A DNA stretch of 64,000 nucleotides from Ogataea parapolymorpha DL-1 (taxonomy: Eukaryota > Ascomycota > Pichiomycetes > Pichiales > Pichiaceae), in assembly GCF_000187245.1 (NCBI RefSeq), contig NC_027864.1, forward strand, positions 1,178,001-1,242,000, read 5' to 3'. This document shows positions 42,942 to 63,942 of the stretch, in pieces. Below the pieces are notes generated by a model. That model was not told where the DNA came from and searched no databases. It saw only the letters and a list, made by a program, of their open reading frames with translations. The stretch's first letter is position 1, and each line of letters opens with the position of its first letter. Both the position numbers and the translations under genes were made by a program.

Positions 42942-44522
42942 CTAGATTGGCGACTTGCAACTGAAACTTTCGGCCGACGTATTCGCAAAAACATACACCA
43001 TGTATCCAATGGACCCCGCAATCCCCATGACGGCAAAGACGCTTGCCAGGAAGAGAATTGATAGAAAGACGCCAGAATGGCGCTTATGAGCTCTGATTCC
43101 CGCCTTAATGTATTTTTTCGGTTTATGTTCGTACCCTTCGGTCTTCATAGCAACTGCATCATAGCAAATTATGTTTTCGGCGTTGGTTTTCACACAGAGT
43201 GCCCACACATTGAAGAGGTACGGGAACATGTATGTGAGTGGGATCATCGTCAGCGCAGACGTGAACGCTGCTACAGCCATCACGTTTGGAACACCTGCAC
43301 TTATCAGGAATATGACGACCCAGACCAGACACACTGTAGCCGACCAGAGCAGCGTGCCACGGACCGAGTTGAACCGGAGGTTTTTGAATATGTCCGGGAG
43401 GTAGTTTTTGTAGAACACTTTGGCCGACAGATGGCCGTAGAAGGTGGCCTGGACAAAACCGGTGATGAATGTGACAAATCCAAAGCCGCGCAGAGCTGCA
43501 ATGTTCGCGATGCCTAGCGCGGCCGGTGAGTTCGAAAACTGGCCCTGTCTCGCGTACACAAAGTTTCCGTATAGCAAATACGTCGCCAGGATGCATACCT
43601 GAGCCAGCAGCATGCTCTTCCAAAAATCCCATGGCCTTCTCATTTCAGCTAGAATTTCCGGGAAAACGAGCAACCCTGCAAAAACGTACGAGAGACTCGT
43701 CACGGAGACGAGTCGCGACACAAAATCTTGCGGAGCCACAGCGTAGCTGTGGACCTCGCCGCGGTCCAAGCCCAGAACGGCCTTTGCGTTGTCCCAGTTG
43801 GGCTCCTTGAAAAAACCCAGTTGCGCAAACAGACATACATAATTAATAATGGATATCCACACGCATAAGTTGCCTAGCTGTTTGAGCTGCTTCAGATGGC
43901 CGATTATTGCCTGGACACCACAAAGAAGCACAACTAGTCCGCAGAAACACACGCGTTGGTCCCGCATAATTTCCAGTCCCTCCACCGCTCCAATGATGAT
44001 GGTAGCAGAGGTCAATATCATAGCCACAACCTGTAAAAAAACTATTAGGTGTCTCCATGTCTTCCCGCCAAGCAGCTCGGCGATGTCCGCAAACGTGCGT
44101 ATAGGATACTCAGGAGAGTCGAAGAGTATGAACAGCCACCATACCAGTCCGCCTGCCACCAGTGCAAAGCCGAAAAATACAAATAGCATGATGTTTCCTG
44201 GAACGTACCCTAAATACGACATGCTCTGGGGAACCAACATGGCTCCCATAATTTCTGTCGTGAGAAGCCCGGCACACGCTAGCCAGTGCGAGTTGCGCTC
44301 AGCAAGACTGTCGTCCTTCCAGGTCGTGTATTCACTAGCGGGTTCGAGAGACTGGATCTTCAGGGTGCGGTAGATCCACTGGTTCCACCATCGTAGATGA
44401 GCCTCATTTTTCACCTCCTCATACTGTTTCTCTATGAATCTCTGCGCGTAGAAGAGCCTCGTAACTAACGGGACAGCCGCAGGCTCGACGGTCTGCGCAG
44501 ATACATTGACTTCTGTTTTCAT
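42942..44522 (-). CDS. Amino-acid permease of the AAAP family, copy 1 (MTR-like)
   Basis: 526 aa from the ATG at 44522 (MKTEVNVSAQ). About eleven membrane spans. The first conserved block (HWLACAGLLTTEIMGAMLVPQSMSYLGYVPG) and the later RRPWDFWKSMLLAQ, GQFSNSPAALG and FTSALTMIPLTYMFPYLF place it with fungal AAAP transporters like Neurospora MTR, which import neutral and aromatic amino acids. A second copy (54552-56159) shares these blocks nearly word for word. It is divergent from the aminotransferase across a 785-bp region with GATA sites, which hints at nitrogen control. Confidence 0.88.
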   Translation of the reverse strand: MKTEVNVSAQTVEPAAVPLVTRLFYAQRFIEKQYEEVKNEAHLRWWNQWIYRTLKIQSLEPASEYTTWKDDSLAERNSHWLACAGLLTTEIMGAMLVPQSMSYLGYVPGNIMLFVFFGFALVAGGLVWWLFILFDSPEYPIRTFADIAELLGGKTWRHLIVFLQVVAMILTSATIIIGAVEGLEIMRDQRVCFCGLVVLLCGVQAIIGHLKQLKQLGNLCVWISIINYVCLFAQLGFFKEPNWDNAKAVLGLDRGEVHSYAVAPQDFVSRLVSVTSLSYVFAGLLVFPEILAEMRRPWDFWKSMLLAQVCILATYLLYGNFVYARQGQFSNSPAALGIANIAALRGFGFVTFITGFVQATFYGHLSAKVFYKNYLPDIFKNLRFNSVRGTLLWSATVCLVWVVIFLISAGVPNVMAVAAFTSALTMIPLTYMFPYLFNVWALCVKTNAENIICYDAVAMKTEGYEHKPKKYIKAGIRAHKRHSGVFLSILFLASVFAVMGIAGSIGYMVYVFANTSAESFSCKSPI

Positions 44523-45307
44523 GAAAATAATATTCTTGGCTGCAAAGACAAAAACAAATCGCAGAAGCGGCAGACTTTCTGTCACACACGAGGAATATTT
44601 CAAACGGCCACGCAGAGAGATTGTGCGTGGATGAGTGATGAGCAAAATACACACTTTTTCCTTGAGGAAACAGTACCAGCAGGTCGTCTGCCGTGGCACC
44701 CTAAGCCTTGTCTGGCTGTACCACGGGTACCGGATAGATGCAAGGCGCGATAAGAGATAAAGGTGTCACGTGACGTGAGATCACATGACACAAAGCTCAA
44801 ATTCCTATTTTATCACGAGCACGAGATGGAGACCACATGAAAGCACAGCTGGTTTGCTGAGACATTGGCGGGGTACTGTTTTTACTTGTTTCATGTTTTC
44901 GATAAGCACCACCAAGGCAGCAACTCCTGCCTACCCCAGAACAAAATAGGTATCCTGCCGCGGTTGTAGAAACTGCCTAATCTGGATCCGGAACCTGTAA
45001 CAGATTGGCAATGATCGCAATATATTTTTTTGTTCGGGAATCATTCGCGACAGATAAGATTGGGGGATCTGTTGGTCGTCTCGTAGAAGTCTTGGAGCGG
45101 TGTAACAGGCTCTTACTGAGCAGGGTATGAGTGGTGAGTAACTTGCAAGGCCCTGCTCTGGTAACTCCCAAGGCGAGGAAAGGTTCTACCGGATCAACCT
45201 GCAAAAAAATCAATTTTTTGATCAAGTATGCAAGGATAACGGTTGCTGGCCTAATTTGGCGATCGCAACAGTATAAAAAGGCCAATGGATCCAGGCTGGA
45301 TCTAATC
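44523..45307. promoter_or_regulatory. Divergent permease / aminotransferase regulatory region
   Basis: 785 bp without a credible gene. GATAAG occurs at 44749-44754 with GATAAA directly after it (44756-44761), and again at 44901-44906 and 45053-45058. CACGTG lies at 44767-44772, a GGGGG run at 45062-45066, and TATAAAAA at 45272-45279, 36 bp before the aminotransferase ATG. GATAAG is the core of fungal GATA factors (Gln3/Gat1/AreA type), so nitrogen-catabolite control is plausible. Confidence 0.55.
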
Positions 45308-46723: not shown

Positions 46724-46812
46724 TATTAGTAATTGCTACACTTGTTCGTTTTTGGAAATACCCGTATTTCTTATCGTATAAATAGGCCTCGCGGCCTAGA
46801 AAAAAAATAAAA

Positions 46813-47823: not shown

Positions 47824-47954
47824 GTGTATAGGGGTAATTGATTAGGCAACTGTCGGACATTCCACTTGCGGCCTCGGTATGCAGGTGTCGGGTGTGCGCC
47901 TTATCGAAATGATTTAAAGCAGCTTGCTCGCTGAAAAAGTTTCTCTCATCCAAA

Positions 47955-48326
47955 ATGCAAAAAGTTACGTGGGAAGAAGTTGGAGCTGCTCCAAACGCTA
48001 TTCTGTCGCCAGCTTACAAGAGCAATGGCCATGTGTTCACCTCTGGAAGCGTCGGCTTTGCTCCAGACGGCACTGTTCCTGAAGATGTTACGGTGCAGAC
48101 CAAGTACGCCATCGAGGCCCTGGAGAAGGTGCTGAAGACTTCTGGCTCGTCGCTCGACAAGGTGCTGAAGGTGCTGCTGTTTATTGCCGACCCGCTTGAT
48201 GCTCCAGCGGTCAATGCCGTCTACAAGGAGTACTTCAAGCACCAGCCAGCCAGATCGTGTGTTGTTGTCCAATTCCCAGACGCCAGACTAAAAGTCGAGC
48301 TGGAGTGTGTTGCTGTGTATGAGTAG
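47955..48326 (+). CDS. RidA/YjgF-family protein, copy 1 (atypical)
   Basis: 123 aa. Canonical RidA hydrolyses reactive enamine/imine products of PLP dehydratases. Present: SGSVGF strand, SSLDKVLKVLLFI, the substrate-binding arginine in PARSCVVVQF, and the late glutamate in LKVELECVAV. The usual N-terminal GPYSQ-type block is absent: SPAYKSNGHVFTSG is found instead. It is closer to copy 2 at 57142 than to Hmf1/Mmf1 by these features. No mitochondrial presequence is obvious. A reverse GATAAG (CTTATC) lies at 47900-47905, 50 bp upstream. Confidence 0.9.
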   Translation: MQKVTWEEVGAAPNAILSPAYKSNGHVFTSGSVGFAPDGTVPEDVTVQTKYAIEALEKVLKTSGSSLDKVLKVLLFIADPLDAPAVNAVYKEYFKHQPARSCVVVQFPDARLKVELECVAVYE

Positions 48327-49170: not shown

Positions 49171-50475
49171 CTACTGTTCCTTTGTCAGCCCATACGTCGG
49201 GAACATACTGCTCAGTCTATAATCCTCATACATCTTCAGATGCTCGGGATCGTTGATGAAAATCTGCCCAAGGAAATCCTCGCAGATGCTCTGTTCCATG
49301 CCCACCACAAGGAGCATACCTCCCTTCTCTAGGTACTCCTTGTCCACGGATTCGTAGCCGCCTCTGTCTTTGTTCAGCACAAGCTCCACCGCGTTGTTGC
49401 CGGCCTGACAGCCCTCTCTGTAGGCCCATCCGGCAGTTTTCACCAGCGGCAGGTCTGCCAAGTCGCCGACCGCAAAAACATTGCCAATAACATTGCCCTT
49501 GTCGGTCTTGACCTCGTATTGATGGGTGACGAGGATGTCGCCGTTAGGAGCAAACACGTTCGGGTAGTTCTTCGCCAGAAAGTCCACGTTGTTCTTCTTG
49601 TAGTTGCACCAGAACGTTAGGTCACTTGTGATGACTCTGCCGTCGGTGGTCACCAGAACACCGTCTGCCTGTTCAGTTTTAATTCTCGTGTTGAGCAGCA
49701 CTTCAACTCCGAGGTTGTTGAGAAATTCAAGCACCTGCTGCTTGAATCTGTCGCAAATCAGAGGCTCTGGTGGCAGAGTGGCGTGTGGATGGACCAACAC
49801 GACCTCTTTTTCTGGGAACTGGTGCTTAATCTCGCCGGCAAGCTCAATTCCCAAGGCGCCGCCGCCAATAATCACCGTTTTTTTCGCATTTTTAATCTGC
49901 GCGGTAGAGTCGGCCATCTCCTTCCTGAGTTCCTCCACCGTCGACGAGAGCGGGTCCAACGGCCAGTTTCTCGTCCGACCGCTAGCAATAATGACGCTGT
50001 CGTACGGAATATCCACCTCCTCGGCCGATTTCGTCGGCCGGTACCTTTCTGGCAGCCGGCCTTTGTCGAGCTTCCCGATCTTCACCTTGGCAATGTTGTT
50101 CACGAGCTCGGTCACGTGGCCCTGCACAAAATGCAGCTTTAGGTTGGGGTTGTACTTAAGCTCCTCGGCAGCAACTCCGATGTGCGGCTTATCGCCGTTT
50201 TCGCTTCTCAACACCTTTTTTGTGTCAAATGGCATATCCTCCTGCAGCTTGATGGTGTCCCAGTACACGTTGGCGCGCTCAAACGAGACAAACGACTCGG
50301 CTGCAAACTCGGGATCAAGCACCGCCTTTGGGATACCAAGAATATTGAGGATTCCGAGCTTTGGCTCGACCAGCGTGACGTCCAGCTGCTGTGTCAGGTT
50401 CTGTGCCTTCTTGATAATACTTTTCAGAGCTCCAAGGCCCCCGAAGGAGCCTCCTATAATCAAGATACGAGGCAT
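49171..50475 (-). CDS. AIF/AMID-like FAD-dependent NAD(P)H oxidoreductase
   Basis: 434 aa. Two Rossmann motifs: FAD-binding at the N-terminus (ILIIGGSFGGLGALKSI) and NAD(P)-binding near residue 195 (TVIIGGGALGIELAGEIK), plus the C-terminal FAD motif FAVGDLADLPL. This is the pattern of Aif1/AMID/Ndi-like two-dinucleotide flavoproteins. No mitochondrial presequence or transmembrane span is evident, so a cytosolic or peripheral enzyme is likely. Electron acceptor unknown. It shares a 352-bp promoter with the divergent polyol dehydrogenase. Confidence 0.88.
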   Translation of the reverse strand: MPRILIIGGSFGGLGALKSIIKKAQNLTQQLDVTLVEPKLGILNILGIPKAVLDPEFAAESFVSFERANVYWDTIKLQEDMPFDTKKVLRSENGDKPHIGVAAEELKYNPNLKLHFVQGHVTELVNNIAKVKIGKLDKGRLPERYRPTKSAEEVDIPYDSVIIASGRTRNWPLDPLSSTVEELRKEMADSTAQIKNAKKTVIIGGGALGIELAGEIKHQFPEKEVVLVHPHATLPPEPLICDRFKQQVLEFLNNLGVEVLLNTRIKTEQADGVLVTTDGRVITSDLTFWCNYKKNNVDFLAKNYPNVFAPNGDILVTHQYEVKTDKGNVIGNVFAVGDLADLPLVKTAGWAYREGCQAGNNAVELVLNKDRGGYESVDKEYLEKGGMLLVVGMEQSICEDFLGQIFINDPEHLKMYEDYRLSSMFPTYGLTKEQ

Positions 50476-50827: not shown

Positions 50828-51919
50828 ATGACTTACAACAGCATCCCTAACCCATCTCTTCAGGTCACCAAGGACCACACCCTCGAAATTAAGGAGGCTC
50901 CTGTCGAGCGGCCTGGCGCAGGCGAGGCCCTCGTCCATATCAAAGCCACCGGTATCTGTGGTTCCGACGTCCACTTCTGGAAGCACGGACAAATTGGCGA
51001 ACTCAAGGTTCTAGGAAACTGTGTTCTGGGCCACGAAGCCGCTGGTGAGGTTGTTGAGGTCGGCGAAGGCGTCACAAACGTGAAAGTCGGCGATAGAGTG
51101 GCCATCGAGCCGCAGATGCCATGCGGCAAATGTTTCCTGTGCATCCAAGGAGACTACAATCTGTGTGAGGAGGTGGACTTTTTGTCGGTTTATCCATGCC
51201 ACGGAACCATGCAGCGTTTCAGAAAAACCAAGGCTGCCACGCTCTTCAAAATCCCCGACAGCATGACGTTTGAGGAAGGTGCTCTGTGCGAGCCGCTCAG
51301 CGTGGCGTACCACGGGATCGAGCGCGCAGAGCTCGAACTAGGCCGCGGAGCCATGATCTGCGGTGCTGGCCCAATTGGTCTTGCCACGCTGGTGCTGGCC
51401 AATGCGAGCGGAGCAGCTCCGCTCGCGATCTCCGATCTGTCGGCAGAACGTCTTGCTTTTGCGAAGAAACTCGTTCCAAGAGTCAAAACATACCAGATTG
51501 ACCCAAAACTGAGCCCGCAGCAGAACGCAATTGGTGTTCGGAAACTTTTCGGGCCAACAGAGGAGGACGCGCCGCCAAGAGTGCTCGAGTGCACGGGTGT
51601 CGAGAGCAGTATTGTTACTGGGGCCTACATTGTGAGACGCAGCGGCACGTTGATGGTGATTGGCGTGGGCAGAGACATCATCAACAACTTCCCGTTCATG
51701 CATCTGTCTCTGGGAGAGGTGGACGTGAAGTTTATTAACAGATACCACCAATCGTGGCCTGCGGTGATCAGACTGATCAGCGACGGCATAATCGACGTGC
51801 AGCAGTTTGTGACGCACCGGTTCCCGCTTGAGAAGGCTGACGAGGCAATCAAGCTCTCGAGCGACCCGAAAAACGGCAGCATCAAGGTCATCATCGAGGA
51901 CCAGCTCCGGGTGCTGTAG
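50828..51919 (+). CDS. Zn-dependent polyol dehydrogenase (L-arabinitol/xylitol dehydrogenase-like)
   Basis: 363 aa from the ATG at 50828. MDR family: catalytic-zinc motifs GICGSDVHFWKHG and GHEAAGEVVEVGEGV, structural-zinc cysteines in PCGKCFLCIQGDYNLC, cofactor motif CGAGPIGLATLVLA. NLCEEVDFLSVYPCHGTMQRF resembles fungal L-arabinitol 4-dehydrogenase more than Xyl2. The acidic residue after the Rossmann strand (ISDLSAERL) fits NAD preference. The substrate could be another polyol; threonine dehydrogenase is less likely from the motifs. Confidence 0.88.
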   Translation: MTYNSIPNPSLQVTKDHTLEIKEAPVERPGAGEALVHIKATGICGSDVHFWKHGQIGELKVLGNCVLGHEAAGEVVEVGEGVTNVKVGDRVAIEPQMPCGKCFLCIQGDYNLCEEVDFLSVYPCHGTMQRFRKTKAATLFKIPDSMTFEEGALCEPLSVAYHGIERAELELGRGAMICGAGPIGLATLVLANASGAAPLAISDLSAERLAFAKKLVPRVKTYQIDPKLSPQQNAIGVRKLFGPTEEDAPPRVLECTGVESSIVTGAYIVRRSGTLMVIGVGRDIINNFPFMHLSLGEVDVKFINRYHQSWPAVIRLISDGIIDVQQFVTHRFPLEKADEAIKLSSDPKNGSIKVIIEDQLRVL

Positions 51920-52878: not shown

Positions 52879-54546
52879 ATGAGAGTCACCGTGGCCTGTG
52901 CTGGATGCCGGCTGAAAAAAATCAAGTGTATTCACAATGGCCATGCACCGTGCCAGAACTGCCAAACACGCGAAGGCCGCGACGAGTGCCGGCTATTCAC
53001 CACGCAGGAGTTTCGCAAGTACAAGCGGGCCAACACAGTGCTGCTCAAGATCGATAGTGGCAAAATGGAGCTGTCAGAGAGTCTGGTGAATACGTGTATT
53101 GGGATTACTGTGCAGAATCATCCCGAACTGGTATTTCTCTACTTCCCCCCGAATATCAATCTGTTTCGGCTACTCGACCCGGTGGTGTGCCTCGGTCTGT
53201 GCGCCCTAAGCTCGCCATTTCTCGAAAAATCCCCCGAGAACTCAGAATTCATCGCCGCGTTCGAGGCCAAGCTGCTCGAAAAGCTGGACGATAAAGTCAG
53301 CATGGACTACTTGGTGCTGCTGCAGGCAAGCGTCATTTGGCTGCTGCTCAACTGGCAAACCGGAAAAACCAATAAAGGATACCTGTTTGGCGGGTTTGCC
53401 GACCGCGTGTACACGACACTTACCAAACAGAAGAACACGAGCAGCTCGCTGATTGAGCAGGAGTTCTACATTCGCAGCATCTGGGCCTACCAGTTGACAT
53501 GTCTATCGCTGAGAGAAGGATACACGGACGGCCGTGCTAGACTGACAAAGTACAGACTTCCGATGCCGAATAAGGACCTTCTTTTTGGACATATGGGGCC
53601 ATGCAAGTATCTCGGCGACATAAATCTGAGCCAGACGTCGGAATTGTTTTATTTATTCGTCTACACCACGGATATTTGGACAGACAGCAACACGTGGATT
53701 TTTAAAGGCGGCCGAAACCACTATAGAGAGGCGCCGTGGGACCCGGCCAGCAAGTGGCACAGTCTCAACATGCGAATAGAGTCATTGGAAGCACAGCTGG
53801 GGCCAAAGGAGAAGTTTTCGCTGTCCAACCTCGAGGCCCATTTTTCTCTAGGCGAAGGAACTATTTTCTGCTACCTGCATCTGGGAATATTAATATCCAA
53901 GATCCTGATTCGACGCAATTACTTTCCGTTTGTGCCGCTTGACCAGACAGGTCCCAAGGGCCCTCATCCGCTGTCCAAAGAGCTTTGCGGCGCGCCCAAG
54001 GGCTGGTGGAGAGAAAACGCACACACGGTTTTTGACTGCAGTCGCATGATAGCCACCATTTTTGACGAGCTGCAAAAACGCAACAAGCTGTTTTGCAACT
54101 CGTACTCCGGCTACTGCGGCCTAACCGCGGCCTCTATGCTCATCTACGCGCACAACTTCCCCTCCTACGACCCCACGTTCCACGACGCAGACCTGTACTA
54201 TCAGTACTGTCTGAACTTTCTGAAATTCTACAAAGCGCACTGGGAGCTGGGCTCCTACTATTACGATTTTTTGCAGCACACGCGTCGGATGCTGGAGGCT
54301 GCGGCTAGCAACAAGATTGAGATTGCCAGCATTTCCGCGTTTGAAAACATGAAGGACGAGCTGATCGAGGTGGCCAACGTGGCTGCTCCGCTGCCCAAGA
54401 CCGACCGGCTGAACATAGAAAGCCTGCTGCGTTCGCCAAAGGTGCCAAACTCGCCAGCGGAGGATGTGGACTGGCTCAGCGCAAACATGGCATGGGACTT
54501 TGGCTGGTCGAATCTGGGAGTTACTTTTACAGACTATATGTGCTAA
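52879..54546 (+). CDS. Zn2Cys6 transcription factor
   Basis: 555 aa from the ATG at 52879. The binuclear cluster is at the extreme N-terminus: Cys7, 10, 17, 25, 28, 37 (C-x2-C-x6-C-x7-C-x2-C-x8-C) in CAGCRLKKIKCIHNG, followed by basic FRKYKR. The spacing and RLFTTQEFRKYKR recall Cha4, the serine/threonine-responsive activator of yeast, but the middle region is not alignable by eye. Two CTTATC motifs lie upstream (52820-52825, 52844-52849). Likely a local pathway regulator (inference from position). Confidence 0.85.
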   Translation: MRVTVACAGCRLKKIKCIHNGHAPCQNCQTREGRDECRLFTTQEFRKYKRANTVLLKIDSGKMELSESLVNTCIGITVQNHPELVFLYFPPNINLFRLLDPVVCLGLCALSSPFLEKSPENSEFIAAFEAKLLEKLDDKVSMDYLVLLQASVIWLLLNWQTGKTNKGYLFGGFADRVYTTLTKQKNTSSSLIEQEFYIRSIWAYQLTCLSLREGYTDGRARLTKYRLPMPNKDLLFGHMGPCKYLGDINLSQTSELFYLFVYTTDIWTDSNTWIFKGGRNHYREAPWDPASKWHSLNMRIESLEAQLGPKEKFSLSNLEAHFSLGEGTIFCYLHLGILISKILIRRNYFPFVPLDQTGPKGPHPLSKELCGAPKGWWRENAHTVFDCSRMIATIFDELQKRNKLFCNSYSGYCGLTAASMLIYAHNFPSYDPTFHDADLYYQYCLNFLKFYKAHWELGSYYYDFLQHTRRMLEAAASNKIEIASISAFENMKDELIEVANVAAPLPKTDRLNIESLLRSPKVPNSPAEDVDWLSANMAWDFGWSNLGVTFTDYMC

Positions 54547-54551
54547 TCAAA

Positions 54552-56159
54552 TTATATTGGGGAGGTGCACGAAAAAGAGGTGGCCGGAGTGGTTGCGAAA
54601 ATGGCCTTCATGTACTCAACAGACCCGTAGAGACCCAGACAGGCAAACGAGAGCGACGCAAAGGTCAGACAAACGTAAAAGACTGTGATAAAGCCGTGCT
54701 TCCGGAAACCGTTTTTGACAAACGCCATGAACGGCCGCTGATAGCCGGTGGCCTCCATGGTGGCCTCGTTGTAGTCCTCAATAAGCTCGGCGTTGGTCTT
54801 CATGAACGCCGCCCAGATGTAAAACCAGAATGGAATCACATACGTCAGCGGGATCATCGTCAGGGCAGACGTGAACGCCGAGATGGAGGCCACGTTCGGA
54901 ACACCTGTCGCCACAATGTAGATGATGGCCCAAACGATGGCTGTGGACACATACCACAGCAATTGGCCCTTCTTGCTACGGATGTCGAGGTCGTGGAAGA
55001 TCCGTGGCAGGTAGTTCTTGTAGATGATCTTGGTGTTCACGTGACCGTAGAACACCGCCTGGAACACGCCCACGACGAAGGTGATCACAGAGAGACCTTT
55101 GAGGGCCGTCATGTTGGAGAGGCCAAAAACGGATGGCGAGTTTGAAAACTGGCCCTGTTTCGTGTAAACGTAGTTGCCGTAGATGAGGTAGATGCACACG
55201 ATGGCGCTCTGGGCGGCGATCATGGACTTCCAAAAGTCCCATGGTCTCTTCATCTCCGAGATAATTTCTGGGAACACCACAGAGCCGGCGAAAACGTACG
55301 AGATGTTGGAGACCGCCACGAGCTTGTTGACGAGTGACTGTGGGGCCACCACGTATGTCACAATGGTGTCTTTGTCGAGACCGAGAAGATTTTTCGCGTT
55401 GGCCCAATTCGGCTCCCCAAAATAGCCCATTTGCACGAACAGGTTGACGTAGTTGATTGCAGAGACGACAAGACAGAACTTTCCGACGTTGCTGAACGTT
55501 TTTAAACTTGAAACCACCCCCAAGGCGGCACATAGAGCAACCAACAGGCCTGTCCAGCAGTACCTCGCATCTTGCAGAATAACCATCGACTCGAGGGAGC
55601 TGATTGCTATGTTTGCGCCTGTGAGCAGCATGGCAATAACTTGGAGAAAAATGACAATTTGCGCCCAGGTCTCGCCGCCAAGGATCTTGGCAATCTCAGA
55701 AAACGACTTGACGGGGTACTCTGGCGAGTCGAAGAGAAGAAACAGCCACCAACAAATTCCACCTGCCATCAGAGTGAGGAAAAAACACACCACCAAAATC
55801 AGGTTTCCAGGCACATATCCCACGAGGGAGTATGAGTTGGGGATGAGTGTGGCACCCATGATTTCTGAGGTGAGCAGACCGGCACAGGCCAGCCAGTGCG
55901 ACGACCGAATGGCCAGCTTTTCGTTCTTCCAGGTCTGGTACGAGTCGGTCTTGGGCTTAAGCGCCTTGATGTGGAGCGTACTGTGCACCCAGTCGTGCCA
56001 CCAACCAATCGAGGAGTCTGAACGCACTTCCTCGTACTGTCTCTCCAGCGATCTTTGGGCATAAAATAGTCTGGCTGCGATAGATGGCTCACCCACAACC
56101 GGCTCCACAGAGTGAGTACTGTGGTACTCGACGTCGACAATGACTTTATCTTCCTTCAT
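54552..56159 (-). CDS. Amino-acid permease of the AAAP family, copy 2
   Basis: 535 aa (MKEDKVIVDVEYHS). Paralogue of the permease at 42942-44522: shared RLFYAQRSLERQYEEV, SSHWLACAGLLTSEIMGATL, LFDSPEYPVKSFSEIAKILGGETW, FPEIISEMKRPWDFWKS and the C-terminal FSCTSPI (FSCKSPI in copy 1). About eleven spans. It is divergent from nothing directly: the acetyltransferase lies tandem upstream on the same strand. GATAAG at 56213-56218 and a reverse copy at 56239-56244 lie in its promoter. It converges on the Zn2Cys6 gene with 5 bp between stops. Confidence 0.88.
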   Translation of the reverse strand: MKEDKVIVDVEYHSTHSVEPVVGEPSIAARLFYAQRSLERQYEEVRSDSSIGWWHDWVHSTLHIKALKPKTDSYQTWKNEKLAIRSSHWLACAGLLTSEIMGATLIPNSYSLVGYVPGNLILVVCFFLTLMAGGICWWLFLLFDSPEYPVKSFSEIAKILGGETWAQIVIFLQVIAMLLTGANIAISSLESMVILQDARYCWTGLLVALCAALGVVSSLKTFSNVGKFCLVVSAINYVNLFVQMGYFGEPNWANAKNLLGLDKDTIVTYVVAPQSLVNKLVAVSNISYVFAGSVVFPEIISEMKRPWDFWKSMIAAQSAIVCIYLIYGNYVYTKQGQFSNSPSVFGLSNMTALKGLSVITFVVGVFQAVFYGHVNTKIIYKNYLPRIFHDLDIRSKKGQLLWYVSTAIVWAIIYIVATGVPNVASISAFTSALTMIPLTYVIPFWFYIWAAFMKTNAELIEDYNEATMEATGYQRPFMAFVKNGFRKHGFITVFYVCLTFASLSFACLGLYGSVEYMKAIFATTPATSFSCTSPI

Positions 56160-56311
56160 TGGGTGTAGAACGGATCAATTGCGGATCTTATATTCTTATT
56201 TTTTTGCATCAAGATAAGCAGCGTGCAACCGTTATCAGCTTATCTGGGATTTTTTTTACATTTTCGAAATTCGGCTACACATTCGCGGATGCACTAAGCA
56301 ATCAACCAACG
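56160..56311 (-). promoter_or_regulatory. GATA-type sites upstream of permease copy 2
   Basis: Within 85 bp of the ATG there is GATAAG (56213-56218), TTATC (56232-56236) and CTTATC (56239-56244), an inverted pair of GATA cores 20 bp apart. Such paired sites are typical of nitrogen-regulated fungal promoters. Confidence 0.5.
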
Positions 56312-56971
56312 TTAATTGTCTCTTATCAGCCTGCGCACCACTCTTGCCGGTGCACCAATCACAAGACTATCCCCCTCAACATCTCTGGTAACCACAGAAC
56401 CTGCTCCGACCACCACGTTGTCGCCCAGAGTCACCCCTGGTAAAATGGTTGCATTGGCAGCTATCCAGCAGTTGTCGCCGATAACTACCCTGCGAGAGAA
56501 GTCCACACCTTCGCCTCGGCGCTTTGCGTCCAGCGGATGGTCCGCAGTGGTGATGCACGTGTTCGGCCCGATCTTGCAATTATTGCCAATGATAATCAGC
56601 GACGTGTCCAGAAGCACTGCGTTGGCGTTGATGTAGAGATTGTCGCCAGCAAGGATGTTGAAGCCGTAGTCGCAGCTGAAAGGCGTTTCAATGAGCGGAT
56701 TGGACCCGCACTTGCCCAGAAGATTCTTTGTGAGTGCTGTGCGTGCGGTTTTGAACTCTTTGAGAGATCCAAAATCGTCCAGCTTCATCTGCTGTAGTCG
56801 ACAGCATTTGGTAGTCGACTCAAACCGAGCAATCTCGAGTGGCTCGACCATCGAGTCGTACACCATGCCAGAGATCATTTTGTCATATTCGGGCGTGTTG
56901 GGGATGTTTTGGATATTTTTGCGTGCAAGATCTATGAGCTCATAGTCGAGCTCATGGCTGGGGTTGACCAT
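56312..56971 (-). CDS. Maltose/galactoside O-acetyltransferase-like hexapeptide enzyme
   Basis: 219 aa. N-terminal Mac domain (NTPEYDKMISGMVYDSMVEPLEIARF) followed by a left-handed beta-helix of hexapeptide repeats (NILAGDNLYINANAVLLDTSLIIIG...) with the catalytic histidine in CITTADHPLDAKRR and the acetyl-CoA block IGDNCWIAANATILPGV. Comparable to S. cerevisiae YJL218W. Substrate is probably a sugar or small thiol/hydroxyl compound. Divergent from RidA copy 2 with 170 bp between starts. Confidence 0.9.
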   Translation of the reverse strand: MVNPSHELDYELIDLARKNIQNIPNTPEYDKMISGMVYDSMVEPLEIARFESTTKCCRLQQMKLDDFGSLKEFKTARTALTKNLLGKCGSNPLIETPFSCDYGFNILAGDNLYINANAVLLDTSLIIIGNNCKIGPNTCITTADHPLDAKRRGEGVDFSRRVVIGDNCWIAANATILPGVTLGDNVVVGAGSVVTRDVEGDSLVIGAPARVVRRLIRDN

Positions 56972-57141
56972 AAATATTAATCTATTTATTGTCGTTCACC
57001 GCCACGCATGACCCCACTAGCCACTCTAGTCCAGGTACTGATCCCCCGCCACTAGCTTGAAAACGGCCAAGAATGCAAAAAAATAATTCCCCCACCACCG
57101 CCAAAATTATATAATCCTCGTCAGATCTCCATTCCAGCACA

Positions 57142-57522
57142 ATGGTTGCTGAAAAAATTAGCTGGGACTCTATCAAAGGCAAGGAACATCCGGTGCTCTC
57201 GCCGGGCTTTGTGAGCAATGGCCACGTGTTCACGTCAGGGATCATTGGCTCAAACTACGCTACCGGCGAAACCCCTGAAAAGGTCGAGGACCAGGTTCAT
57301 CTGGCCATCAAGAACCTCGAGAACGTGCTCAAGGCTGCCGGCTCTTCTCTCGACAAGGTGTTTAAGGTGACCATGTTCATCTCCCACGCAGAGTACTCCA
57401 AAGTCGTCAACGAGATCTACGGCCAATACTTCCCGCAAAAACCGGCCAGAAGCTGTGTCGTGGTTGCATTTATGGATGCAGCTATTAAATACGAGCTGGA
57501 GGCTGTGGCCACACTAGATTAA
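57142..57522 (+). CDS. RidA/YjgF-family protein, copy 2 (atypical)
   Basis: 126 aa. Shares with copy 1 the segments SNGHVFTSG, GSSLDKVFKV and PARSCVVV, and the late glutamate in YELEAVATLD. Like copy 1 it lacks the GPYSQ-type block (HPVLSPGFVSNG instead). Substrate-binding arginine retained. The promoter has TTATATAAT near 57108-57116 and CCCCC runs at 57043-57047 and 57089-57093. It converges on the frameshifted MFS gene with 9 bp between stops. Confidence 0.92.
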   Translation: MVAEKISWDSIKGKEHPVLSPGFVSNGHVFTSGIIGSNYATGETPEKVEDQVHLAIKNLENVLKAAGSSLDKVFKVTMFISHAEYSKVVNEIYGQYFPQKPARSCVVVAFMDAAIKYELEAVATLD

Positions 57523-57531
57523 TAAAAATAT

Positions 57532-59053
57532 TTAGTACATCCATCTGTAGTTTGGATTCGAAGGTCCTTCAGCGAGCAAGTACGTGGGGACGTCTCGGTA
57601 CGTCCAGGAGACGCCCTGGGCCCTGTTTCTGCGACGGTTGTCCAGCACCATAAACGTCAAAATACTGGTCACCGCGATAATGGCAGCACCACCAAACCCG
57701 GCCGTAATTCCCAGGGCAGGCACGTATTTCGGAGCATCCTTTGCGCGGAAGATGTTGGTCGAGATGAGCCCCGCAGCATTCGCCAACGGCACGCCGACAG
57801 CAGAAATCACCACTCTTCTGTTCTCGTTCGGCGTGTTGTTGTTGTACCACGTGGAAGTGAGCACTGACGACGCCGACGAGCCGGTAGTCATGAGGAAGCA
57901 CGAGAAGTATGCCACACCGATATGCGCCTGTGTGTCGATGCAGCCAAACACGACGAACCCGATCAACGTGGAGGCCACGGCCAGGACGATAAAAATGGAC
58001 CGCACGCGCAGCAGGTCCGACGCAAAGCACCAGAAAATTAGCGCCACGGCCCCCCACACGTTGGGCGCGACCGTGTACAGGTTTGTCATGACGGTGCCCT
58101 TGCCGAGCGACTCAATGATCTGCGGGAACCAGTTGTTGATGGAGTTGAGCGGCACTCCAATAAAGATCTCCTCGAACATCCACGCAATGGCGACGGGGTG
58201 CTTGAACACCTTGATGGCGTCCATGAGCGACACTTTCTCGGTGGACAGCGAGGACGAGTCAGTGCGGATCCGCCAGATGGCGCACTCGCGCTCTTCTTCA
58301 GTGAGAAAGGCTGCTTTTTCGACCGTCCGCGGCAGGTAGAAGAACGCAAACACCGCCACAATCACGGTTGCCCCACCCTCGACCAAAAACAAAATCTGCC
58401 ACCCGTGAAGTCTTTCTGTTTTAATCTGGAACAAACCAAATGCCAACAGCCCGGAGAACGCGTTGGCGATGTTGGCCGCGGCGTAAAAAATCGACAGCCG
58501 TCTGGCCAGCTCGCCACGCCGGTAAAACGTACTCAGGTAGTAGATGATACCGGGGAAAAAGGCCGACTCGCACATTCCGAGAAACCATCTCGCCGCCATG
58601 AGCGAGCCGTAGTTGAACACCGACACGGCAAGCAGCAAGCAGCGTGATGCTGCCAAATGTGAACATCAAGCACGGAATCACGTTGGCGGCGTTGTATCGT
58701 TTGATCAGAAGCGAGAGCGGGAAGGCGCACAACACAAATGGGATGTAGAAGATGGAGAGCATGTTGTTCCATTGCTGGCCCTTGATGCCCAAATCCACGT
58801 CCAACTTGTCTGTTTTTGCGTTGGAGATATTGCCCTTGTCGAGCGCATTGAACAGATACATCACGGTGATGAGTGGCAGGATCCTGATGTCGAACTTCCA
58901 ACAGATACGACGCTCGAGCTTGTGGTCGAGCACGCGCACCGGCTCGCCGGCGCCGTGTTCTTTGTCGTCTGTGACACGCTGTTCAAGAGAGACAACGTCA
59001 ACTGTGTCGTGCAGTTTTGGGTCCATGGTTGAGTGGTTGATACCATGGTTCAT
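57532..59053 (-). pseudogene. Dal5-type MFS transporter (anion/cation symporter family), frameshifted
   Basis: Two overlapping minus-strand frames encode consecutive parts of one transporter. The first (ATG 59053) holds spans 1-3, including FDIRILPLITVMYLFNALDKGNISNAKT, the Dal5/ACS hallmark. The second holds the rest, from FNYGSLMAARWFLGMCESAFFPGIIYYL to the C-terminus. They are out of register by one base near 58630, where minus-strand GCTTGCTGCTTGC has a short direct repeat; removing one base there would give about 506 codons, the usual length. Could be a true lesion, a strain polymorphism or a sequencing error. Relatives import allantoate, vitamins or small carboxylates. Confidence 0.85.
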
Positions 59054-59295
59054 CCGTATTTATATCTTACCCCGTATTTGTGATTTCTTATCATGTCCCC
59101 CACCGGGGCGCGGGGAGATAACGTCGGTAATTGCGATGCAAGTCCGCAGAGGCAGAGAGTTGGCAGACAATAGCACCTTGAGCGTATCTCTGATAGTCTA
59201 CCAGAACGTCGCCAAGACTTGTGTGGGGGAGGTTCATTTCGTCCATATCGTCGGCCGCCACTAATTTTTATTTTTTTCCAGTGGTGCTCCACCAG
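59054..59295. promoter_or_regulatory. Divergent MFS / C2H2-factor promoter with C-rich motifs
   Basis: 242 bp. CTTATC at 59087-59092, CCCCC 59097-59101, GGGG 59105-59108 and 59112-59115, and GGGGG at 59225-59229. The dense G/C runs could be targets of a GGGG-recognising zinc finger such as the protein encoded next door. Confidence 0.45.
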
Positions 59296-61644
59296 ATGCA
59301 GCAAGCCCCAAGGAAAAGAGGCCCTCGAAAATTGGGGCTCTACGTGTGCGAGTTCCCCGGCTGCGGCAAGCAGTTTTCGCGTTCTGACCATGTGAAACGG
59401 CACGCGCGAAATCACACTAGCGAGGGCCGTTTCCGTTGCGAGGTCCCAGGATGCACGGCCGAGTTTACGCGGCTGGATATTAAAACCAAGCACCAGAACC
59501 GGCACTTTCGTCGGCTAGATCGGGTGAGCGAGGTGCCAGAAAACGTCTCGGGCGCTGCTGACAGCACGAAGCCCGAGGGCTCGTCTCCCGCTGGGCAAAT
59601 GGAGTCAACAGAAAGTTCAGACCATACCACTAAAGATGTGATATCGCAGCCTACACCGCAGATCGGACCGTTTGCCACCAACGTGGGGGACTCTGCGCTT
59701 GTGTCGCCGTCATTCTCGCCGTCTCGCCTGATACGGTGGATGATGCACGATCTGACAGAGGTGTCACCCAGCCATGCCGACCACCAGACCTCTCACGGTC
59801 CGTTGTTTGCCGAATACCACCAGCTCGGCGCAGACACCGCCACGATGCTCAACGAGGTGCTCGCCATTACACCCGAGTTCCCCAACGCCAACTACCAGAC
59901 CGACGTCGACGAAAACATCCTGCTGCACATGTCGCAGCGGCTGCCCATGCTCGAAGGACATGCAGACTTCGAGGTCTACAAGGTGCGTTTATTTCTGAAA
60001 CTTTATTGGCGGATGTACCATTCACAGTACCCCATTCTACACAGGCCGTCGTTCTCCACGTTCCAGGTCCATCCGCTGCTTTTGTTGGCCATGGTGATGA
60101 TTGGGGCCTCGTTTGCGAAAAAATGCCCCATGCCAGAGGATGTGGAGCTTAGCGATCCTGACGGTTTTGCGGATCTGATAGCGTATCCGCTGCGGTGGCT
60201 GATTTTTTCTTGCGACGAGGCCAAACCGGGCTGTAATTCGTGGGTGATCCAGAGCCTGCTGATGCTGGAGACGTACGAGATCACAAAGACGTCGCGTCGG
60301 CTGCACGAGCGAGCATGTATATATAACGGCACCAAAATCCAGCTTTTACGCAGAAGCCCGATCCTGGGCGGTGATCCACTTAAGGGAGGCAGCGCCGACC
60401 CGAGCCACTCGAACAGCCTGTGGACCACGTGGATCGAGAGCGAGTCGATGAAACGCGCTGCGTGGATGTCTTTTTACATCGACACCATCCACGCAGTGGT
60501 TTACGGCCACCCAGTCAGCATTTACGACAGCCAGATAAAGCTCTCATTGCCGTGTCCGGACGATTTGTGGGAGTACGACAACTTCGACAGAAACAACGCT
60601 CCCGCCTCTGTGATGCAGATGCCAATTTTCACCGACGCTCTTACGCGGCTGCTCCGCAACGAGCCGGTCCAAACAGGGCCTTTTGGCCGCAAAATTCTAC
60701 TTGCGGGCCTGCTCAACCTCAACATCCAGATGAGCCAGAAAGAGTCGCAGCTGACGCTGCTGGGCTGGGACTCCAAGCGGGAAAATTGGAAGGCCAGCAT
60801 TGCGTCGGCTTTGGACCACTGGAGAGTGCAGTTGCCACAGCGAAGCTGCTGCCATGCAGGCTCATGTCTCTACCATGCAGACAGCGGGCCGGCTCTGTTG
60901 CCGCCCTCTTTCCACGCCCATGATACCAGGTGCAAATTCCCCGAATACCACTCTGCACAACTGCATCTCTGGATCACCCATTACGACTACATAGTTTACG
61001 CGGGGGCGCCCAAACGGATGAACGTGCCAGTTTTGACAGAAGACTACGATGTGGTTGTGCGCCGGATTGCCAAGTGGGCGCAGTCGGGTGCGGGTGCAAT
61101 TTGCGCGGTCAACTCGTACATCCTGCTCTTTGAAATGATGCTTTCGCCAGAAAATAGCACCGATCAGGTGAATTATGTCTATGAGCCCGACAAAGACCCA
61201 TTTATTTACCGGCCGAATGTGATTGTGTCCGCCACATTGTCGCTGTGGGCATTTACGTTCTACAACTACGGTCCCGAGTCGAGGTTTATGTCGCCCGAAT
61301 CCGGGATCGAGCTAGACGGGGACTATGCCCCCGCGATGGAGGACGCGTACGCTTATTTGCGGCGAATTCGCACGGAGCTAGTAAAGGAGACCGGGATCCC
61401 TTTCAGAAAGCTTAATCAGATGGACCCGGACCAGTACAAAAAGGCCGTGGCCGAGTACGCTGCTGCTCTGTCCCGAGTCTCGCACATAAACTATATGGTG
61501 GGGTTGCTGCTCGCCCTTGCCACGGGCTACAAGAATGGCAAGTGGGAGATTGGTCGTGAGTACGCAAAACTTCTCCGCAACTGCGCCCAAAGAAGCATGG
61601 GCAGCCCCGTGGTTTTCTGTATGAATATGTACGAAGATAACTAA
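59296..61644 (+). CDS. C2H2 zinc-finger transcription factor with fungal regulatory domain
   Basis: 782 aa from the ATG at 59296 (MQQAPRKRGPRKLG). Two adjacent C2H2 fingers: Cys18, Cys23, His36, His40 and Cys48, Cys53, His66, His70. Their helices read RSDHVKR and RLDIKTK, like Mig1/Adr1/Klf-type GGG-binding fingers. From about residue 220 to 700 lies a fungal-specific regulatory region (FLKLYWRMYHSQYPILHRPSF and VGLLLALATGYKNGK) as in many C2H2-MHR factors. Target genes unknown; local regulation is an inference from location. Confidence 0.9.
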   Translation: MQQAPRKRGPRKLGLYVCEFPGCGKQFSRSDHVKRHARNHTSEGRFRCEVPGCTAEFTRLDIKTKHQNRHFRRLDRVSEVPENVSGAADSTKPEGSSPAGQMESTESSDHTTKDVISQPTPQIGPFATNVGDSALVSPSFSPSRLIRWMMHDLTEVSPSHADHQTSHGPLFAEYHQLGADTATMLNEVLAITPEFPNANYQTDVDENILLHMSQRLPMLEGHADFEVYKVRLFLKLYWRMYHSQYPILHRPSFSTFQVHPLLLLAMVMIGASFAKKCPMPEDVELSDPDGFADLIAYPLRWLIFSCDEAKPGCNSWVIQSLLMLETYEITKTSRRLHERACIYNGTKIQLLRRSPILGGDPLKGGSADPSHSNSLWTTWIESESMKRAAWMSFYIDTIHAVVYGHPVSIYDSQIKLSLPCPDDLWEYDNFDRNNAPASVMQMPIFTDALTRLLRNEPVQTGPFGRKILLAGLLNLNIQMSQKESQLTLLGWDSKRENWKASIASALDHWRVQLPQRSCCHAGSCLYHADSGPALLPPSFHAHDTRCKFPEYHSAQLHLWITHYDYIVYAGAPKRMNVPVLTEDYDVVVRRIAKWAQSGAGAICAVNSYILLFEMMLSPENSTDQVNYVYEPDKDPFIYRPNVIVSATLSLWAFTFYNYGPESRFMSPESGIELDGDYAPAMEDAYAYLRRIRTELVKETGIPFRKLNQMDPDQYKKAVAEYAAALSRVSHINYMVGLLLALATGYKNGKWEIGREYAKLLRNCAQRSMGSPVVFCMNMYEDN

Positions 61645-61748
61645 CTGTGCAGCGCCCCCCACATTTTTTCTCCTCAGTGGTGGAGGGCATATTTATTGCA
61701 AGAAAGAAAAGACCAAGCTACTAAACTCTTAGCTCACTATATTCTCCC

Positions 61749-62690: not shown

Positions 62691-62697
62691 CTACATA

Positions 62698-63942
62698 CTA
62701 CCATCCTCTATATGGCACCCAAATATCCACGACCGTATTGCCATCTTCAACAACGTAGTACCATGGATACGATGCTGCCGTGATACAGCTGTGCTGTGGG
62801 ATAATGCTGACCACGGTGCCTGTAGGAATCAGCTTTGTGTCCTTCTCCTCCACAGGCGTCAAGATTCCGTGCTCCTGACTGAGCCGTCCAACAGTCCAAT
62901 TTTCGTATCCTGGTGGGGACACAATTTTTCCAAACCCAGGCAGCGGGCCAGACTCACGTGCCAGCGCTATAACACCAGCGTTGATCAACTGCTCGCCGGG
63001 AGCCTTGGAGCCTCTTCCAGGATAGGCGGAAACAACCTCCGCGATAACTTTGCAGGCAACATCAGAAACCTCAATACAGCCTGTAGCTAGCTGCTGCAGG
63101 TCGCAGAATGGGTAGTTTCCCGCATGGAGCTCGAGATTACCAAACAGCTGGCCCACAGCGCTGAGATCGAATTTTTCAGCCGCATGGGCCGTTGGAGTGG
63201 CGCCAACCGACATCTGGAGCTTTAGTGAGTTGTCAAACTTGAGTGCCTCTTTGCACGCCTCATTCACGCTCGAGATCTCAGAAATTAAGAAAGATTGTGC
63301 CTGCTCAAAGTTTCTGGACGTGTACGAGTGGCCGGCGTGGCAGTAAAAACCGTAGAGCGAGACTGTCTGGGTGATGTCTGTCTTTAGAATTTTTTCAAGC
63401 AGCTCGGAAATCGAACTAGGCAGGAAACCTGCTCTATCGGTGCCCATGTTGATTTTGATGAAGACGCTCCATTTTTTCGACAGCGAGTGTTTTTTGCTGA
63501 AAGCAGCCAAAATGTCTAGCTGTTCCAGGTTGTCCACCATCAGACGCAAACTCTCAACCTTGGTGCTCAGATCTGCAAGCTCTTCCAGACGGCTGGAAAC
63601 GACCGGCAGGCTGAAAAGAACGTCCTTGATCAAGCCGTTAGAGATAAGCGGCAGCAGACCCCACGCCTCTCTGAGCGTCGACACAACGATTTTATCAGTC
63701 TTGTACTTGCCAGTGCCGAGCTGCAGTGCTGTTCCCTCGAGGGTTTTGTGAGTTTTAACGTGTGCACGGAAATCTGCGCCGAGGTTGTGAGCGTTCTCAA
63801 GCATTTTGTCCGAGTTTCTCTGGAAGGTTGCCCTGTCGACCACAAAGGCGGGTGTAGGCAGGGACTCGATGCTGACGCCTTTGTAGGCCTTGAGCAGTTC
63901 GTCTTTGTTGGACAGGTCAGTGAGTTCAGATGGGTACTTCAT
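62698..63942 (-). CDS. DSD1: D-serine dehydratase (Zn- and PLP-dependent)
   Basis: 414 aa. Fold-type III (alanine-racemase-like) enzyme converting D-serine to pyruvate and ammonia via 2-aminoacrylate. PLP lysine Lys63 in RAHVKTHKTLEG, substrate-barrel blocks VFIKINMGTDRAGF and GFYCHAGHSY, and the zinc ligands His384 and Cys386 in IIPQHSCITAASYPW, characteristic of eukaryotic Dsd1 (S. cerevisiae YGL196W). D-threonine aldolase, a relative, lacks this HxC zinc site. A GGGGG run lies at 63944-63948 just before the ATG, and TTATC at 63979-63983. Confidence 0.93.
   Translation of the reverse strand: MKYPSELTDLSNKDELLKAYKGVSIESLPTPAFVVDRATFQRNSDKMLENAHNLGADFRAHVKTHKTLEGTALQLGTGKYKTDKIVVSTLREAWGLLPLISNGLIKDVLFSLPVVSSRLEELADLSTKVESLRLMVDNLEQLDILAAFSKKHSLSKKWSVFIKINMGTDRAGFLPSSISELLEKILKTDITQTVSLYGFYCHAGHSYTSRNFEQAQSFLISEISSVNEACKEALKFDNSLKLQMSVGATPTAHAAEKFDLSAVGQLFGNLELHAGNYPFCDLQQLATGCIEVSDVACKVIAEVVSAYPGRGSKAPGEQLINAGVIALARESGPLPGFGKIVSPPGYENWTVGRLSQEHGILTPVEEKDTKLIPTGTVVSIIPQHSCITAASYPWYYVVEDGNTVVDIWVPYRGW

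What the first reader, a model, noticed from the sequence alone, without database searches (positions are those of the whole stretch)
42942..63942. Putative nitrogen-regulated hydroxy-amino-acid (D-serine) catabolic locus
In 21 kb the window concentrates two amino-acid permeases, an aminotransferase, a YMR226C-type serine/allo-threonine dehydrogenase, D-serine dehydratase, two RidA-type enamine hydrolases, a carbonyl reductase, a DHDPS aldolase, an anion transporter remnant and two regulators. DSD1 makes 2-aminoacrylate and RidA is the known scavenger of that intermediate, so the combination is chemically coherent. I know of no described yeast cluster with this content.
Basis: partly seen in the sequence, partly recalled or inferred. 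Interest (0 to 1): 0.8.

Follow-up and report, generated by a model that had tools for sequence, protein, structure and literature searches.

The report
Yeast D-hydroxy-amino-acid catabolism gene cluster
Near one chromosome end of the methylotrophic yeast Ogataea parapolymorpha lies a gene pair found together in many yeasts, an enzyme that dehydrates D-serine-like amino acids and a partner predicted to clear its reactive product, set among transporter, regulator and metabolic genes typical of yeast chromosome ends.

Summary
The source is O. parapolymorpha DL-1 chromosome 3. But 42.9-63.9 kb is the inner part of a 52.5-kb block running to the contig end. DL-1 ends are published as enriched in such genes, and seven left ends look alike, so density proves little and the window edge sets the boundary. 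Inside is a real module. RidA-2 is its own clade. Aminotransferase, RidA-1 and DSD1 stay together in O. philodendri. GATAAG sites are enriched between the genes (11 versus 1.7). Best reading: uptake, DSD1 dehydration, RidA-2 hydrolysis, perhaps aldol cleavage. An aldolase beside DSD1 is not needed for D-serine and hints at a polyhydroxylated substrate such as D-glucosaminate (untested).

The parts
57142..57522 (+). RidA-2 (126 aa), the RidA lineage linked to DSD1
   Evidence: PF01042; in a 54-row set with 95% SH-aLRT; 83-93% identical to Kuraishia and Lachancea proteins and on contigs with DSD1
62698..63942 (-). DSD1, fold-type III PLP D-serine dehydratase family (414 aa)
   Evidence: PF14031 + PF01168; PDB 3anu E 6e-57; K63, H384 and C386 invariant in 16 aligned rows; only PF14031 match in the genome
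61749..62690 (+). DHDPS-superfamily aldolase-like protein, stop codon 7 bp from that of DSD1
   Evidence: PF00701; best PDB 3qfe, then DapA and 4-hydroxy-2-oxoglutarate aldolase; 40% and 33% identical to the two other genomic copies
59296..61644 (+). C2H2 (two fingers, 7-residue spacing) + Fungal_trans regulator, 782 aa, Klf1-like architecture
   Evidence: PF04082, PF00096; finger spacing
57532..59053 (-). MFS permease gene, interrupted by a frame change between about 58420 and 58600 in this assembly
   Evidence: two overlapping frames, both MFS_1; an intact paralogue, 75% identical over the 355-aa piece compared, lies at the left end of C3
45308..46723 (+). class-III aminotransferase (471 aa), linked to DSD1 in O. 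philodendri
   Evidence: PF00202; OGAPHI_003155 83% identical, contig length equal to that of DSD1 OGAPHI_003173
46813..47823 (+). Gre2-type carbonyl reductase
   Evidence: PF01370, GRE2 structures among the matches
47955..48326 (+). RidA-1 (123 aa)
   Evidence: PF01042; OGAPHI_003158 85% identical
42942..44522 (-). Aa_trans amino-acid permease 1, divergent from the aminotransferase
   Evidence: PF01490; 785-bp gap to the aminotransferase with 3 GATAAG
54552..56159 (-). Aa_trans amino-acid permease 2
   Evidence: PF01490; 51% identical to permease 1
56312..56971 (-). maltose/galactoside O-acetyltransferase-like hexapeptide protein, divergent from RidA-2
   Evidence: PF12464, PF00132; NCBIfam maltose O-acetyltransferase best, 158.6 bits, under the cut-off of 314
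52879..54546 (+). Zn2Cys6 regulator
   Evidence: PF00172
52023..52787 (+). YMR226C-type dehydrogenase
   Evidence: PDB 3rku YMR226C E 1e-77; membership in the module not shown
50828..51919 (+). sorbitol/L-arabinitol-type dehydrogenase, probably a bystander
   Evidence: PDB 3m6i E 1e-96
49171..50475 (-). FSP1/AIFM2-like FAD oxidoreductase, probably a bystander
   Evidence: PDB 8yo8 E 4e-21

Best explanation
The finding is the inner part of the right subtelomeric block of O. parapolymorpha DL-1 chromosome 3. It contains a genuine module, in GATA-rich surroundings, for using D-2-amino-3-hydroxy acids as nitrogen (and carbon). Core, shown by conserved linkage: DSD1 and RidA-2. Likely members, inferred from position only: the MFS permease, the C2H2 regulator and the DHDPS-type aldolase lying between them, and the alpha/beta-hydrolase divergent from DSD1 just outside the window (L001:105-1181). 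Proposed mechanism, inferred: a permease imports the substrate; DSD1 removes the 3-hydroxyl as water and leaves an enamine/imine; RidA-2 hydrolyses it to a 2-keto acid plus ammonia before it can damage PLP enzymes; if the substrate also has a 4-hydroxyl, the aldolase cleaves the 2-keto-3-deoxy acid to pyruvate and an aldehyde. A second module (permease 1, aminotransferase, Gre2-type reductase, RidA-1) sits beside it in Ogataea. The remaining genes are probably ordinary subtelomeric neighbours.
For: Linkage: 20 of 55 RidA-2-type proteins have the same longest-contig length as one of the 120 listed DSD1 hits, against 1 of 37 RidA-1-type (the O. philodendri locus) and 0 of 28 of the C4 type. Eight of these 20 contigs are only 12-63 kb, and locus tags are 2-3 steps apart in five named species. 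Both trees put Lachancea with Ogataea, Kuraishia and Pichia, away from Scheffersomyces, Priceomyces and kin. Catalytic motifs are kept. GATAAG: 11 observed, mean 1.7 in resamples, 0 of 1000 as high. Distant bacterial kin of DSD1 have a RidA within 8 kb in 34 of 80 loci, adjacent in one Pseudomonas. S. pombe: SPAC1039.06 'alanine racemase' and .08 both listed as up under H2S.07c class-III aminotransferase and .08 listed as induced in nitrogen-limited culture.
Against: No expression or growth data. The genes between DSD1 and RidA-2 in other species were not seen; only spacing by tags. Twelve of the 20 shared contigs are chromosome-size, and for eight of those twelve nothing shows closeness. Of 34 named DSD1 rows, 20 have no RidA on an equal contig; the lists are capped, so this is weak but it is against. 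No RidA-2-type protein of O. philodendri, O. haglerorum or O. polymorpha is among the 120 hits (nor is the window's own RidA-2, so small genes are missing from the list). The nearest bacterial kin (Acidobacteria, L029-L043, 31-36% identical) have no RidA in the fetched DNA. GATAAG density is also raised at other ends (1.1-2.5 per kb versus 3.7 here and 0.86 in the core). The MFS gene is interrupted in this assembly. DHDPS is near only 2 of 80 bacterial loci.
Confidence: 0.6

Rival explanations
1. Mere subtelomeric accretion: metabolic genes gathered at a chromosome end with no shared pathway; adjacency is incidental.
For: DL-1 ends are published as enriched in permeases, oxidoreductases and nitrogen-response genes (FDR < 0.25); 72 ORFs from seven left ends show the same kinds of gene; the block continues 31.5 kb to the contig end; paralogues of the MFS, acetyltransferase and SDR lie at other ends.
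Against: DSD1 and RidA-2 are linked by contig or tag in 13 of 16 named yeasts that have both in the capped lists, and aminotransferase, RidA-1 and DSD1 are kept in order in O. philodendri. The module's own families (PF14031, PF01490, PF00202, PF01042) are not among the 25 families shown for the left ends.
Confidence: 0.2
2. One 21-kb D-serine / hydroxy-amino-acid pathway using all the genes.
For: Chemistry of DSD1 and RidA; YMR226C-type enzyme confirmed; O. philodendri keeps aminotransferase and DSD1 18 tags apart on equal-length contigs.
Against: Polyol dehydrogenase and FSP1-like enzyme have no evident place in it; the window edge sets the boundary; in P. carsonii and P. californica the listed aminotransferases lie hundreds of tags from DSD1.
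Confidence: 0.1
3. D-serine detoxification rather than nutrition: DSD1 and RidA-2 remove D-serine, and the neighbours are unrelated.
For: S. cerevisiae Dsd1 is a D-serine dehydratase (recalled); the pair alone is what is shown to be conserved.
Against: A regulator and a permease gene lie between the two genes here; GATAAG enrichment suggests nitrogen nutrition.
Confidence: 0.1

Closest known systems
D-serine dehydratase DSD1 (chicken 3anu; S. cerevisiae Dsd1 recalled; fold-type III PLP, Zn)
   Same: Full-length homology to the chicken enzyme, E 6e-57; HVKTHK and His/Cys motifs kept (roles recalled)
   Different: Linked to a RidA and, here, an aldolase; the S. cerevisiae protein is not among the 120 hits shown and was not compared
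S. pombe SPAC1039.03-.10 region (chromosome I, 5,452,105-5,471,520)
   Same: By annotation: 'alanine racemase' .06, serine acetyltransferase .08, class-III aminotransferase .07c, Isp5 .09, Mmf2 .10; recalled: esterase .03, MFS .04, klf1 .05c, Mmf2 as a RidA protein
   Different: Isp5 is another permease type (recalled); no aldolase recalled there; orthology tested only for DSD1, through S. cryophilus (51%)
Bacterial DSD-family + RidA gene pairs
   Same: RidA within 8 kb in 34 of 80 fetched loci; adjacent in Pseudomonas L047
   Different: Those 34 are only 23-30% identical to DSD1, and the nearest kin lack the RidA; other neighbours (RpiR-SIS, MlrC in L101) differ
Yeast catabolic clusters DAL, nitrate YNT/YNI/YNR, NAG (recalled)
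   Same: Permease, enzymes and a local regulator together
   Different: Different substrates and enzymes
Bacterial D-glucosaminate dehydratase plus KDG aldolase (recalled)
   Same: Same order of chemistry: dehydration of a D-2-amino-3-hydroxy acid, then aldol cleavage of a 2-keto-3-deoxy acid
   Different: No sequence compared here; one search found no paper with both search terms; no yeast counterpart known to me

Membership tests
D-serine dehydratase DSD1 | Ala_racemase_N + D-ser_dehydrat domains, full length | tested here: met
   aligned over 21-414 with 3anu
D-serine dehydratase DSD1 | PLP lysine (HVKTHK) and Zn ligands His/Cys (roles recalled) | tested here: met
   K63, H384, C386 invariant in 16 rows
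D-serine dehydratase DSD1 | Activity on D-serine | not testable with these tools
   needs purified enzyme
RidA enamine/imine deaminase | PF01042 and the PARSC...E active-site pattern (residue roles recalled) | tested here: met
   PARSCVVV and ELEAVA of RidA-2 align with PDB RidA proteins
RidA enamine/imine deaminase | NCBIfam TIGR00004 score above cut-off | tested here: not met
   80.6 (RidA-2) and 72.5 (RidA-1) bits, cut-off 106.25; diverged Rid proteins, so deaminase activity is inferred
Dihydrodipicolinate synthase proper | dapA curated cut-off and the Arg of the VPSRT motif (role recalled) | tested here: not met
   119.2 bits versus 206.15 cut-off; the query has YPGVQNG at the VPSRT position; a retro-aldolase-type member is likelier
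Nitrogen-regulated (GATA factor) cluster | GATAAG sites in promoters above expectation | tested here: met
   11 versus mean 1.7, 0 of 1000; milder excess at other ends
Nitrogen-regulated (GATA factor) cluster | Induction on poor nitrogen source | not testable with these tools
   no expression data held for these genes
Conserved gene cluster: DSD1 with RidA-2 | Linkage kept in relatives | tested here: met
   eight small contigs and five species by tag; 13 of 16 named yeasts with both in the lists
Conserved gene cluster: whole 21-kb set | Linkage kept in relatives | tested here: inconclusive
   only aminotransferase, RidA-1 and DSD1 could be placed, in O. philodendri

The most novel reading that the evidence does not exclude
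The module is a yeast pathway for D-glucosaminate (2-amino-2-deoxy-D-gluconate) or its N-acetyl form. The hydrolase deacetylates; DSD1 acts as a D-glucosaminate dehydratase; RidA-2 hydrolyses the imine to 2-keto-3-deoxygluconate; the DHDPS-type aldolase yields pyruvate and glyceraldehyde; and the C2H2 regulator is its Klf1-like switch. Pointers: the aldolase gene ends 7 bp from DSD1; S. pombe klf1 mutants accumulate N-acetyl-D-glucosaminate (identified by formula) in nitrogen-starved G0 (PMC3805531, passages); and klf1 (781 aa, two C2H2 fingers spaced by 7, like the 782-aa protein here) lies, as I recall but could not confirm, next to the S. pombe DSD1 homologue.
Probability: 0.17. Interest if true: 0.78.

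Novelty: new member of a known kind. Interest (0 to 1): 0.5.

Why it matters
If right, many budding yeasts carry a nitrogen-scavenging unit in which an enzyme with a toxic intermediate keeps its own RidA beside it. That would explain a separate RidA lineage and turn the question of what DSD1 does in these yeasts into a simple growth test. If the glucosaminate reading holds, it would also give yeasts an amino-sugar-acid pathway and a function for the Klf1-type regulator.

Tried and rejected
The idea that the 21-kb density itself is remarkable was rejected: the seven left ends examined are alike in kind, and the genome paper says so for 50-kb ends.

beta-Hydroxyaspartate cycle: DSD1 scores 71.8 bits against a 690 cut-off for BhcC, and no other member of that cycle was noticed; rejected.

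Lysine biosynthesis for the DHDPS gene: under the dapA cut-off and without the DHDPS arginine; rejected.

RidA as a RutC-type uracil pathway member: 56.6 (RidA-1) and 39.9 (RidA-2) bits versus a 169.1 cut-off; not supported.

Aldolase as a general partner of DSD-family enzymes: only 2 of 80 bacterial loci; this weakens the aldolase step outside this locus.

Other motifs: seven site patterns were counted over the whole region. GATA forms, GGGG and CGG-N11-CCG were denser in the locus than in the core, CCCCT and CCG-NN-CGG were not; only GATAAG was tested against resamples.

Viral contigs: no relative of DSD1. Paper searches for a described cluster or pathway listed none that I recognised as such from titles and abstracts; most subscription journals are not held.

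Structure prediction was not run: the folds are clear by sequence, and no ligand-pocket test was possible.
Full report
WHAT THE WINDOW IS. The window is positions 1,178,001-1,242,000 of contig C3 of an 8,874,589-bp, seven-contig genome. The contig lengths 990,963, 1,273,462, 1,330,267, 1,514,933 and 1,515,570 equal chromosomes 2, 3, 5, 6 and 7 of Hansenula polymorpha DL1, now Ogataea parapolymorpha, in Table 1 of PMC3866509 (passages); all seven equal the short-read column of Table 3 in PMC12098377 (passages), where the telomere-to-telomere chr3 is 1,276,591 bp. The finding lies 31.5-52.5 kb from the contig's right end.

OBSERVATION. The two permeases are 51% identical and the two RidA proteins 50%. 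The MFS gene is read in two overlapping frames.

BOUNDARIES. To the left, the genes look like housekeeping genes by eye; MET6 and TRP2 are recalled names, and the TRP2-like ORF has anthranilate synthase domains. To the right the block goes on to the contig end. Of 18 proteins scanned there, 16 have a Pfam match: alpha/beta hydrolase, sphingomyelinase-like protein, MFS, TauD, a second DHDPS, Zn2Cys6 and Fungal_trans regulators, SDR, P450, DAO oxidase, HAD hydrolase, amino-acid permease, amidohydrolase, aldo-keto reductase, another class-III aminotransferase and another YMR226C-like SDR; two have none. PMC3866509 (section 7, whole) reports that genes within 50 kb of DL-1 chromosome ends are enriched for permeases, oxidoreductases and nitrogen-starvation response (FDR < 0.25). 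As a control I took the left 20 kb of all seven contigs: 72 non-overlapping ORFs of 180 aa or more give MFS_1 17, Sugar_tr 7, Zn_clus 6, DAO 5, Fungal_trans 5, Fungal_trans_2 4. Aa_trans, Aminotran_3, RidA and D-ser_dehydrat are not among the 25 families shown, so the kinds of gene are alike but not these families.

CONSERVED LINKAGE. The three protein searches show the best 120 hits each, out of 1,624, 4,171 and 1,669. I sorted the 120 RidA hits by best bit score to the four RidA proteins of this genome that were compared: 55 are RidA-2-type, 37 RidA-1-type and 28 like the C4 copy; none is nearest the C7 copy. Using exact equality of the longest contig's length as a proxy for lying on one contig, 20 of 55 RidA-2-type, 1 of 37 RidA-1-type and 0 of 28 C4-type share a contig with a listed DSD1. 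The one RidA-1 case is O. philodendri, the syntenic locus itself. Eight of the 20 contigs are 12-63 kb; the other twelve are 0.6-3.2 Mb, where sharing alone is weak. Locus tags give closeness in five species: Lachancea lanzarotensis S01e19372/S01e19306, L. dasiensis 0G04984/0G05050 and L. mirantina 0G17810/0G17744 (66 apart, three steps of 22 by the Genolevures convention, recalled); Pichia californica 1133/1135 (its longest-contig lengths differ, so it is not in the 20); Priceomyces carsonii 3517/3520. So close linkage is seen in 13 cases, and eight more named species share only a large contig.

Of 16 named yeasts with a RidA-2-type protein and a DSD1 in the lists, 13 are linked by contig or tag. 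Not shown linked: [Candida] railenensis, Scheffersomyces stipitis (the two hits come from contigs of different length) and Diutina catenulata. Of the 34 named DSD1 rows, 14 have a listed RidA by contig or tag (13 RidA-2-type, O. philodendri RidA-1) and 20 do not. The lists are capped: no RidA-2-type protein of O. haglerorum, O. polymorpha or O. philodendri appears, and neither does the window's own RidA-2.

In P. carsonii and P. californica the listed aminotransferases (40-55% identical, perhaps paralogues) are far from DSD1.

TREES. In the DSD1 tree (121 rows, quick search, SH-aLRT only), Lachancea groups with Ogataea, Kuraishia and [Candida] arabinofermentans inside a 35-row set (97%) that also holds Pichia; Priceomyces, Scheffersomyces, Yamadazyma and kin, with Pachysolen, form a 63-row set (96%). 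Komagataella and Brettanomyces fall outside both, weakly placed. In the RidA tree (71 rows: four own proteins and 67 of the 120 hits, among them 54 of the 55 RidA-2-type; few columns), RidA-2 types form a 54-row set (95%), with P0345 outside it; its 47-row core (99%) splits the same way (18 rows 96%; 29 rows 89%). The shared split, with Lachancea beside Ogataea, Kuraishia and Pichia, suggests that the pair moved together, possibly by horizontal transfer; this was not tested further.

REGULATION. GATAAG occurs 11 times in 3,456 bp of cluster intergenic DNA (first-order resamples: mean 1.7, 0 of 1000 as high) and 3 times in 3,707 bp of core intergenic DNA (mean 1.5, 195 of 1000). Densities per kb of non-ORF DNA: core 0.86, cluster 3.69, C3 right end beyond the window 2.50, left ends 1.14-2.25. 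The enrichment is real but partly shared by other ends.

CHEMISTRY. DSD1 keeps K63 and the H384/C386 motif in all 16 aligned rows (residue roles recalled). The DHDPS-family protein is below the curated dapA cut-off and has no arginine at the VPSRT position, so a retro-aldolase acting on a 2-keto-4-hydroxy acid is likelier than dihydrodipicolinate synthase. D-serine would need only DSD1 and RidA. An aldolase convergent with DSD1 (7 bp between stop codons) suggests a longer polyhydroxylated substrate. This step is inference. Bacterial DSD-family loci give RidA in 34 of 80 but DHDPS in only 2 of 80. The 80 are the best of 435, many are related Rhizobiales and Rhodobacterales by title, and the nearest kin, Acidobacteria (L029-L043), show neither in the DNA fetched.

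FISSION YEAST PARALLEL. PMC3229568 (passages) lists SPAC1039.06 (alanine racemase) up 2.14-fold and SPAC1039.08 (serine acetyltransferase) up 2.25-fold under H2S. PMC4614384 (passage) lists SPAC1039.07c (class-III aminotransferase) and .08 as induced, in a study of nitrogen-limited culture. PMC10097750 (passage) places SPAC1039.03, isp5 (.09) and mmf2 (.10) between 5,452,105 and 5,471,520 of chromosome I in a table of its G0 section whose columns I did not read. The S. cryophilus DSD1 homologue, named alanine racemase, is 51% identical to DSD1 here. PMC3805531 (passages) describes Klf1 as 781 aa with two C2H2 fingers spaced by seven residues, and reports N-acetyl-D-glucosaminate, identified by formula only, strongly raised in klf1-deleted G0 cells. 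The regulator here is 782 aa with the same finger number and spacing. That klf1 is SPAC1039.05c is recalled; one search found no paper with that identifier.

VERDICT. Gene list confirmed. The single 21-kb D-serine pathway is not established. A DSD1-RidA-2 unit kept together in many yeasts, here in a nitrogen-type setting, is well supported. The substrate is open, and D-glucosaminate is the most interesting testable candidate.

Noticed in passing
L020:5886-7367 and L020:8823-9488 (C3 left end): MFS protein (493 aa) 75% identical to the longer piece of the interrupted cluster MFS, and a hexapeptide acetyltransferase 51% identical to the cluster one, within 3.6 kb: perhaps a partial duplicate of the locus at the other end of the chromosome.
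   Followed up: partly
L004:4542-5366 and L015:178-996: YMR226C-like SDRs at the C3 right end and C1 left end are 96% identical, a sign of recent exchange between chromosome ends.
   Followed up: no
window 45308-46723: Zygosaccharomyces parabailii has an aminotransferase 70% identical, closer than several Brettanomyces and Pichia homologues at about 55%: possible horizontal transfer.
   Followed up: no
L001:4873 to L002:2560: A second compact catabolic block: 385-aa protein without Pfam match, MFS, TauD, DHDPS-family protein, a deacetylase-like ORF (by eye), Zn2Cys6 regulator.
   Followed up: no
L101:4602-9059: In Roseibium aggregatum, a DSD-family enzyme lies with RidA, an MlrC/M81 protein and an RpiR-SIS regulator, a regulator type often tied to sugar phosphates (recalled).
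   Followed up: partly
P0266: A RidA-2-type protein is listed for Cerrena zonata, a basidiomycete, but groups with ascomycete yeasts, so it may be contamination.
   Followed up: no
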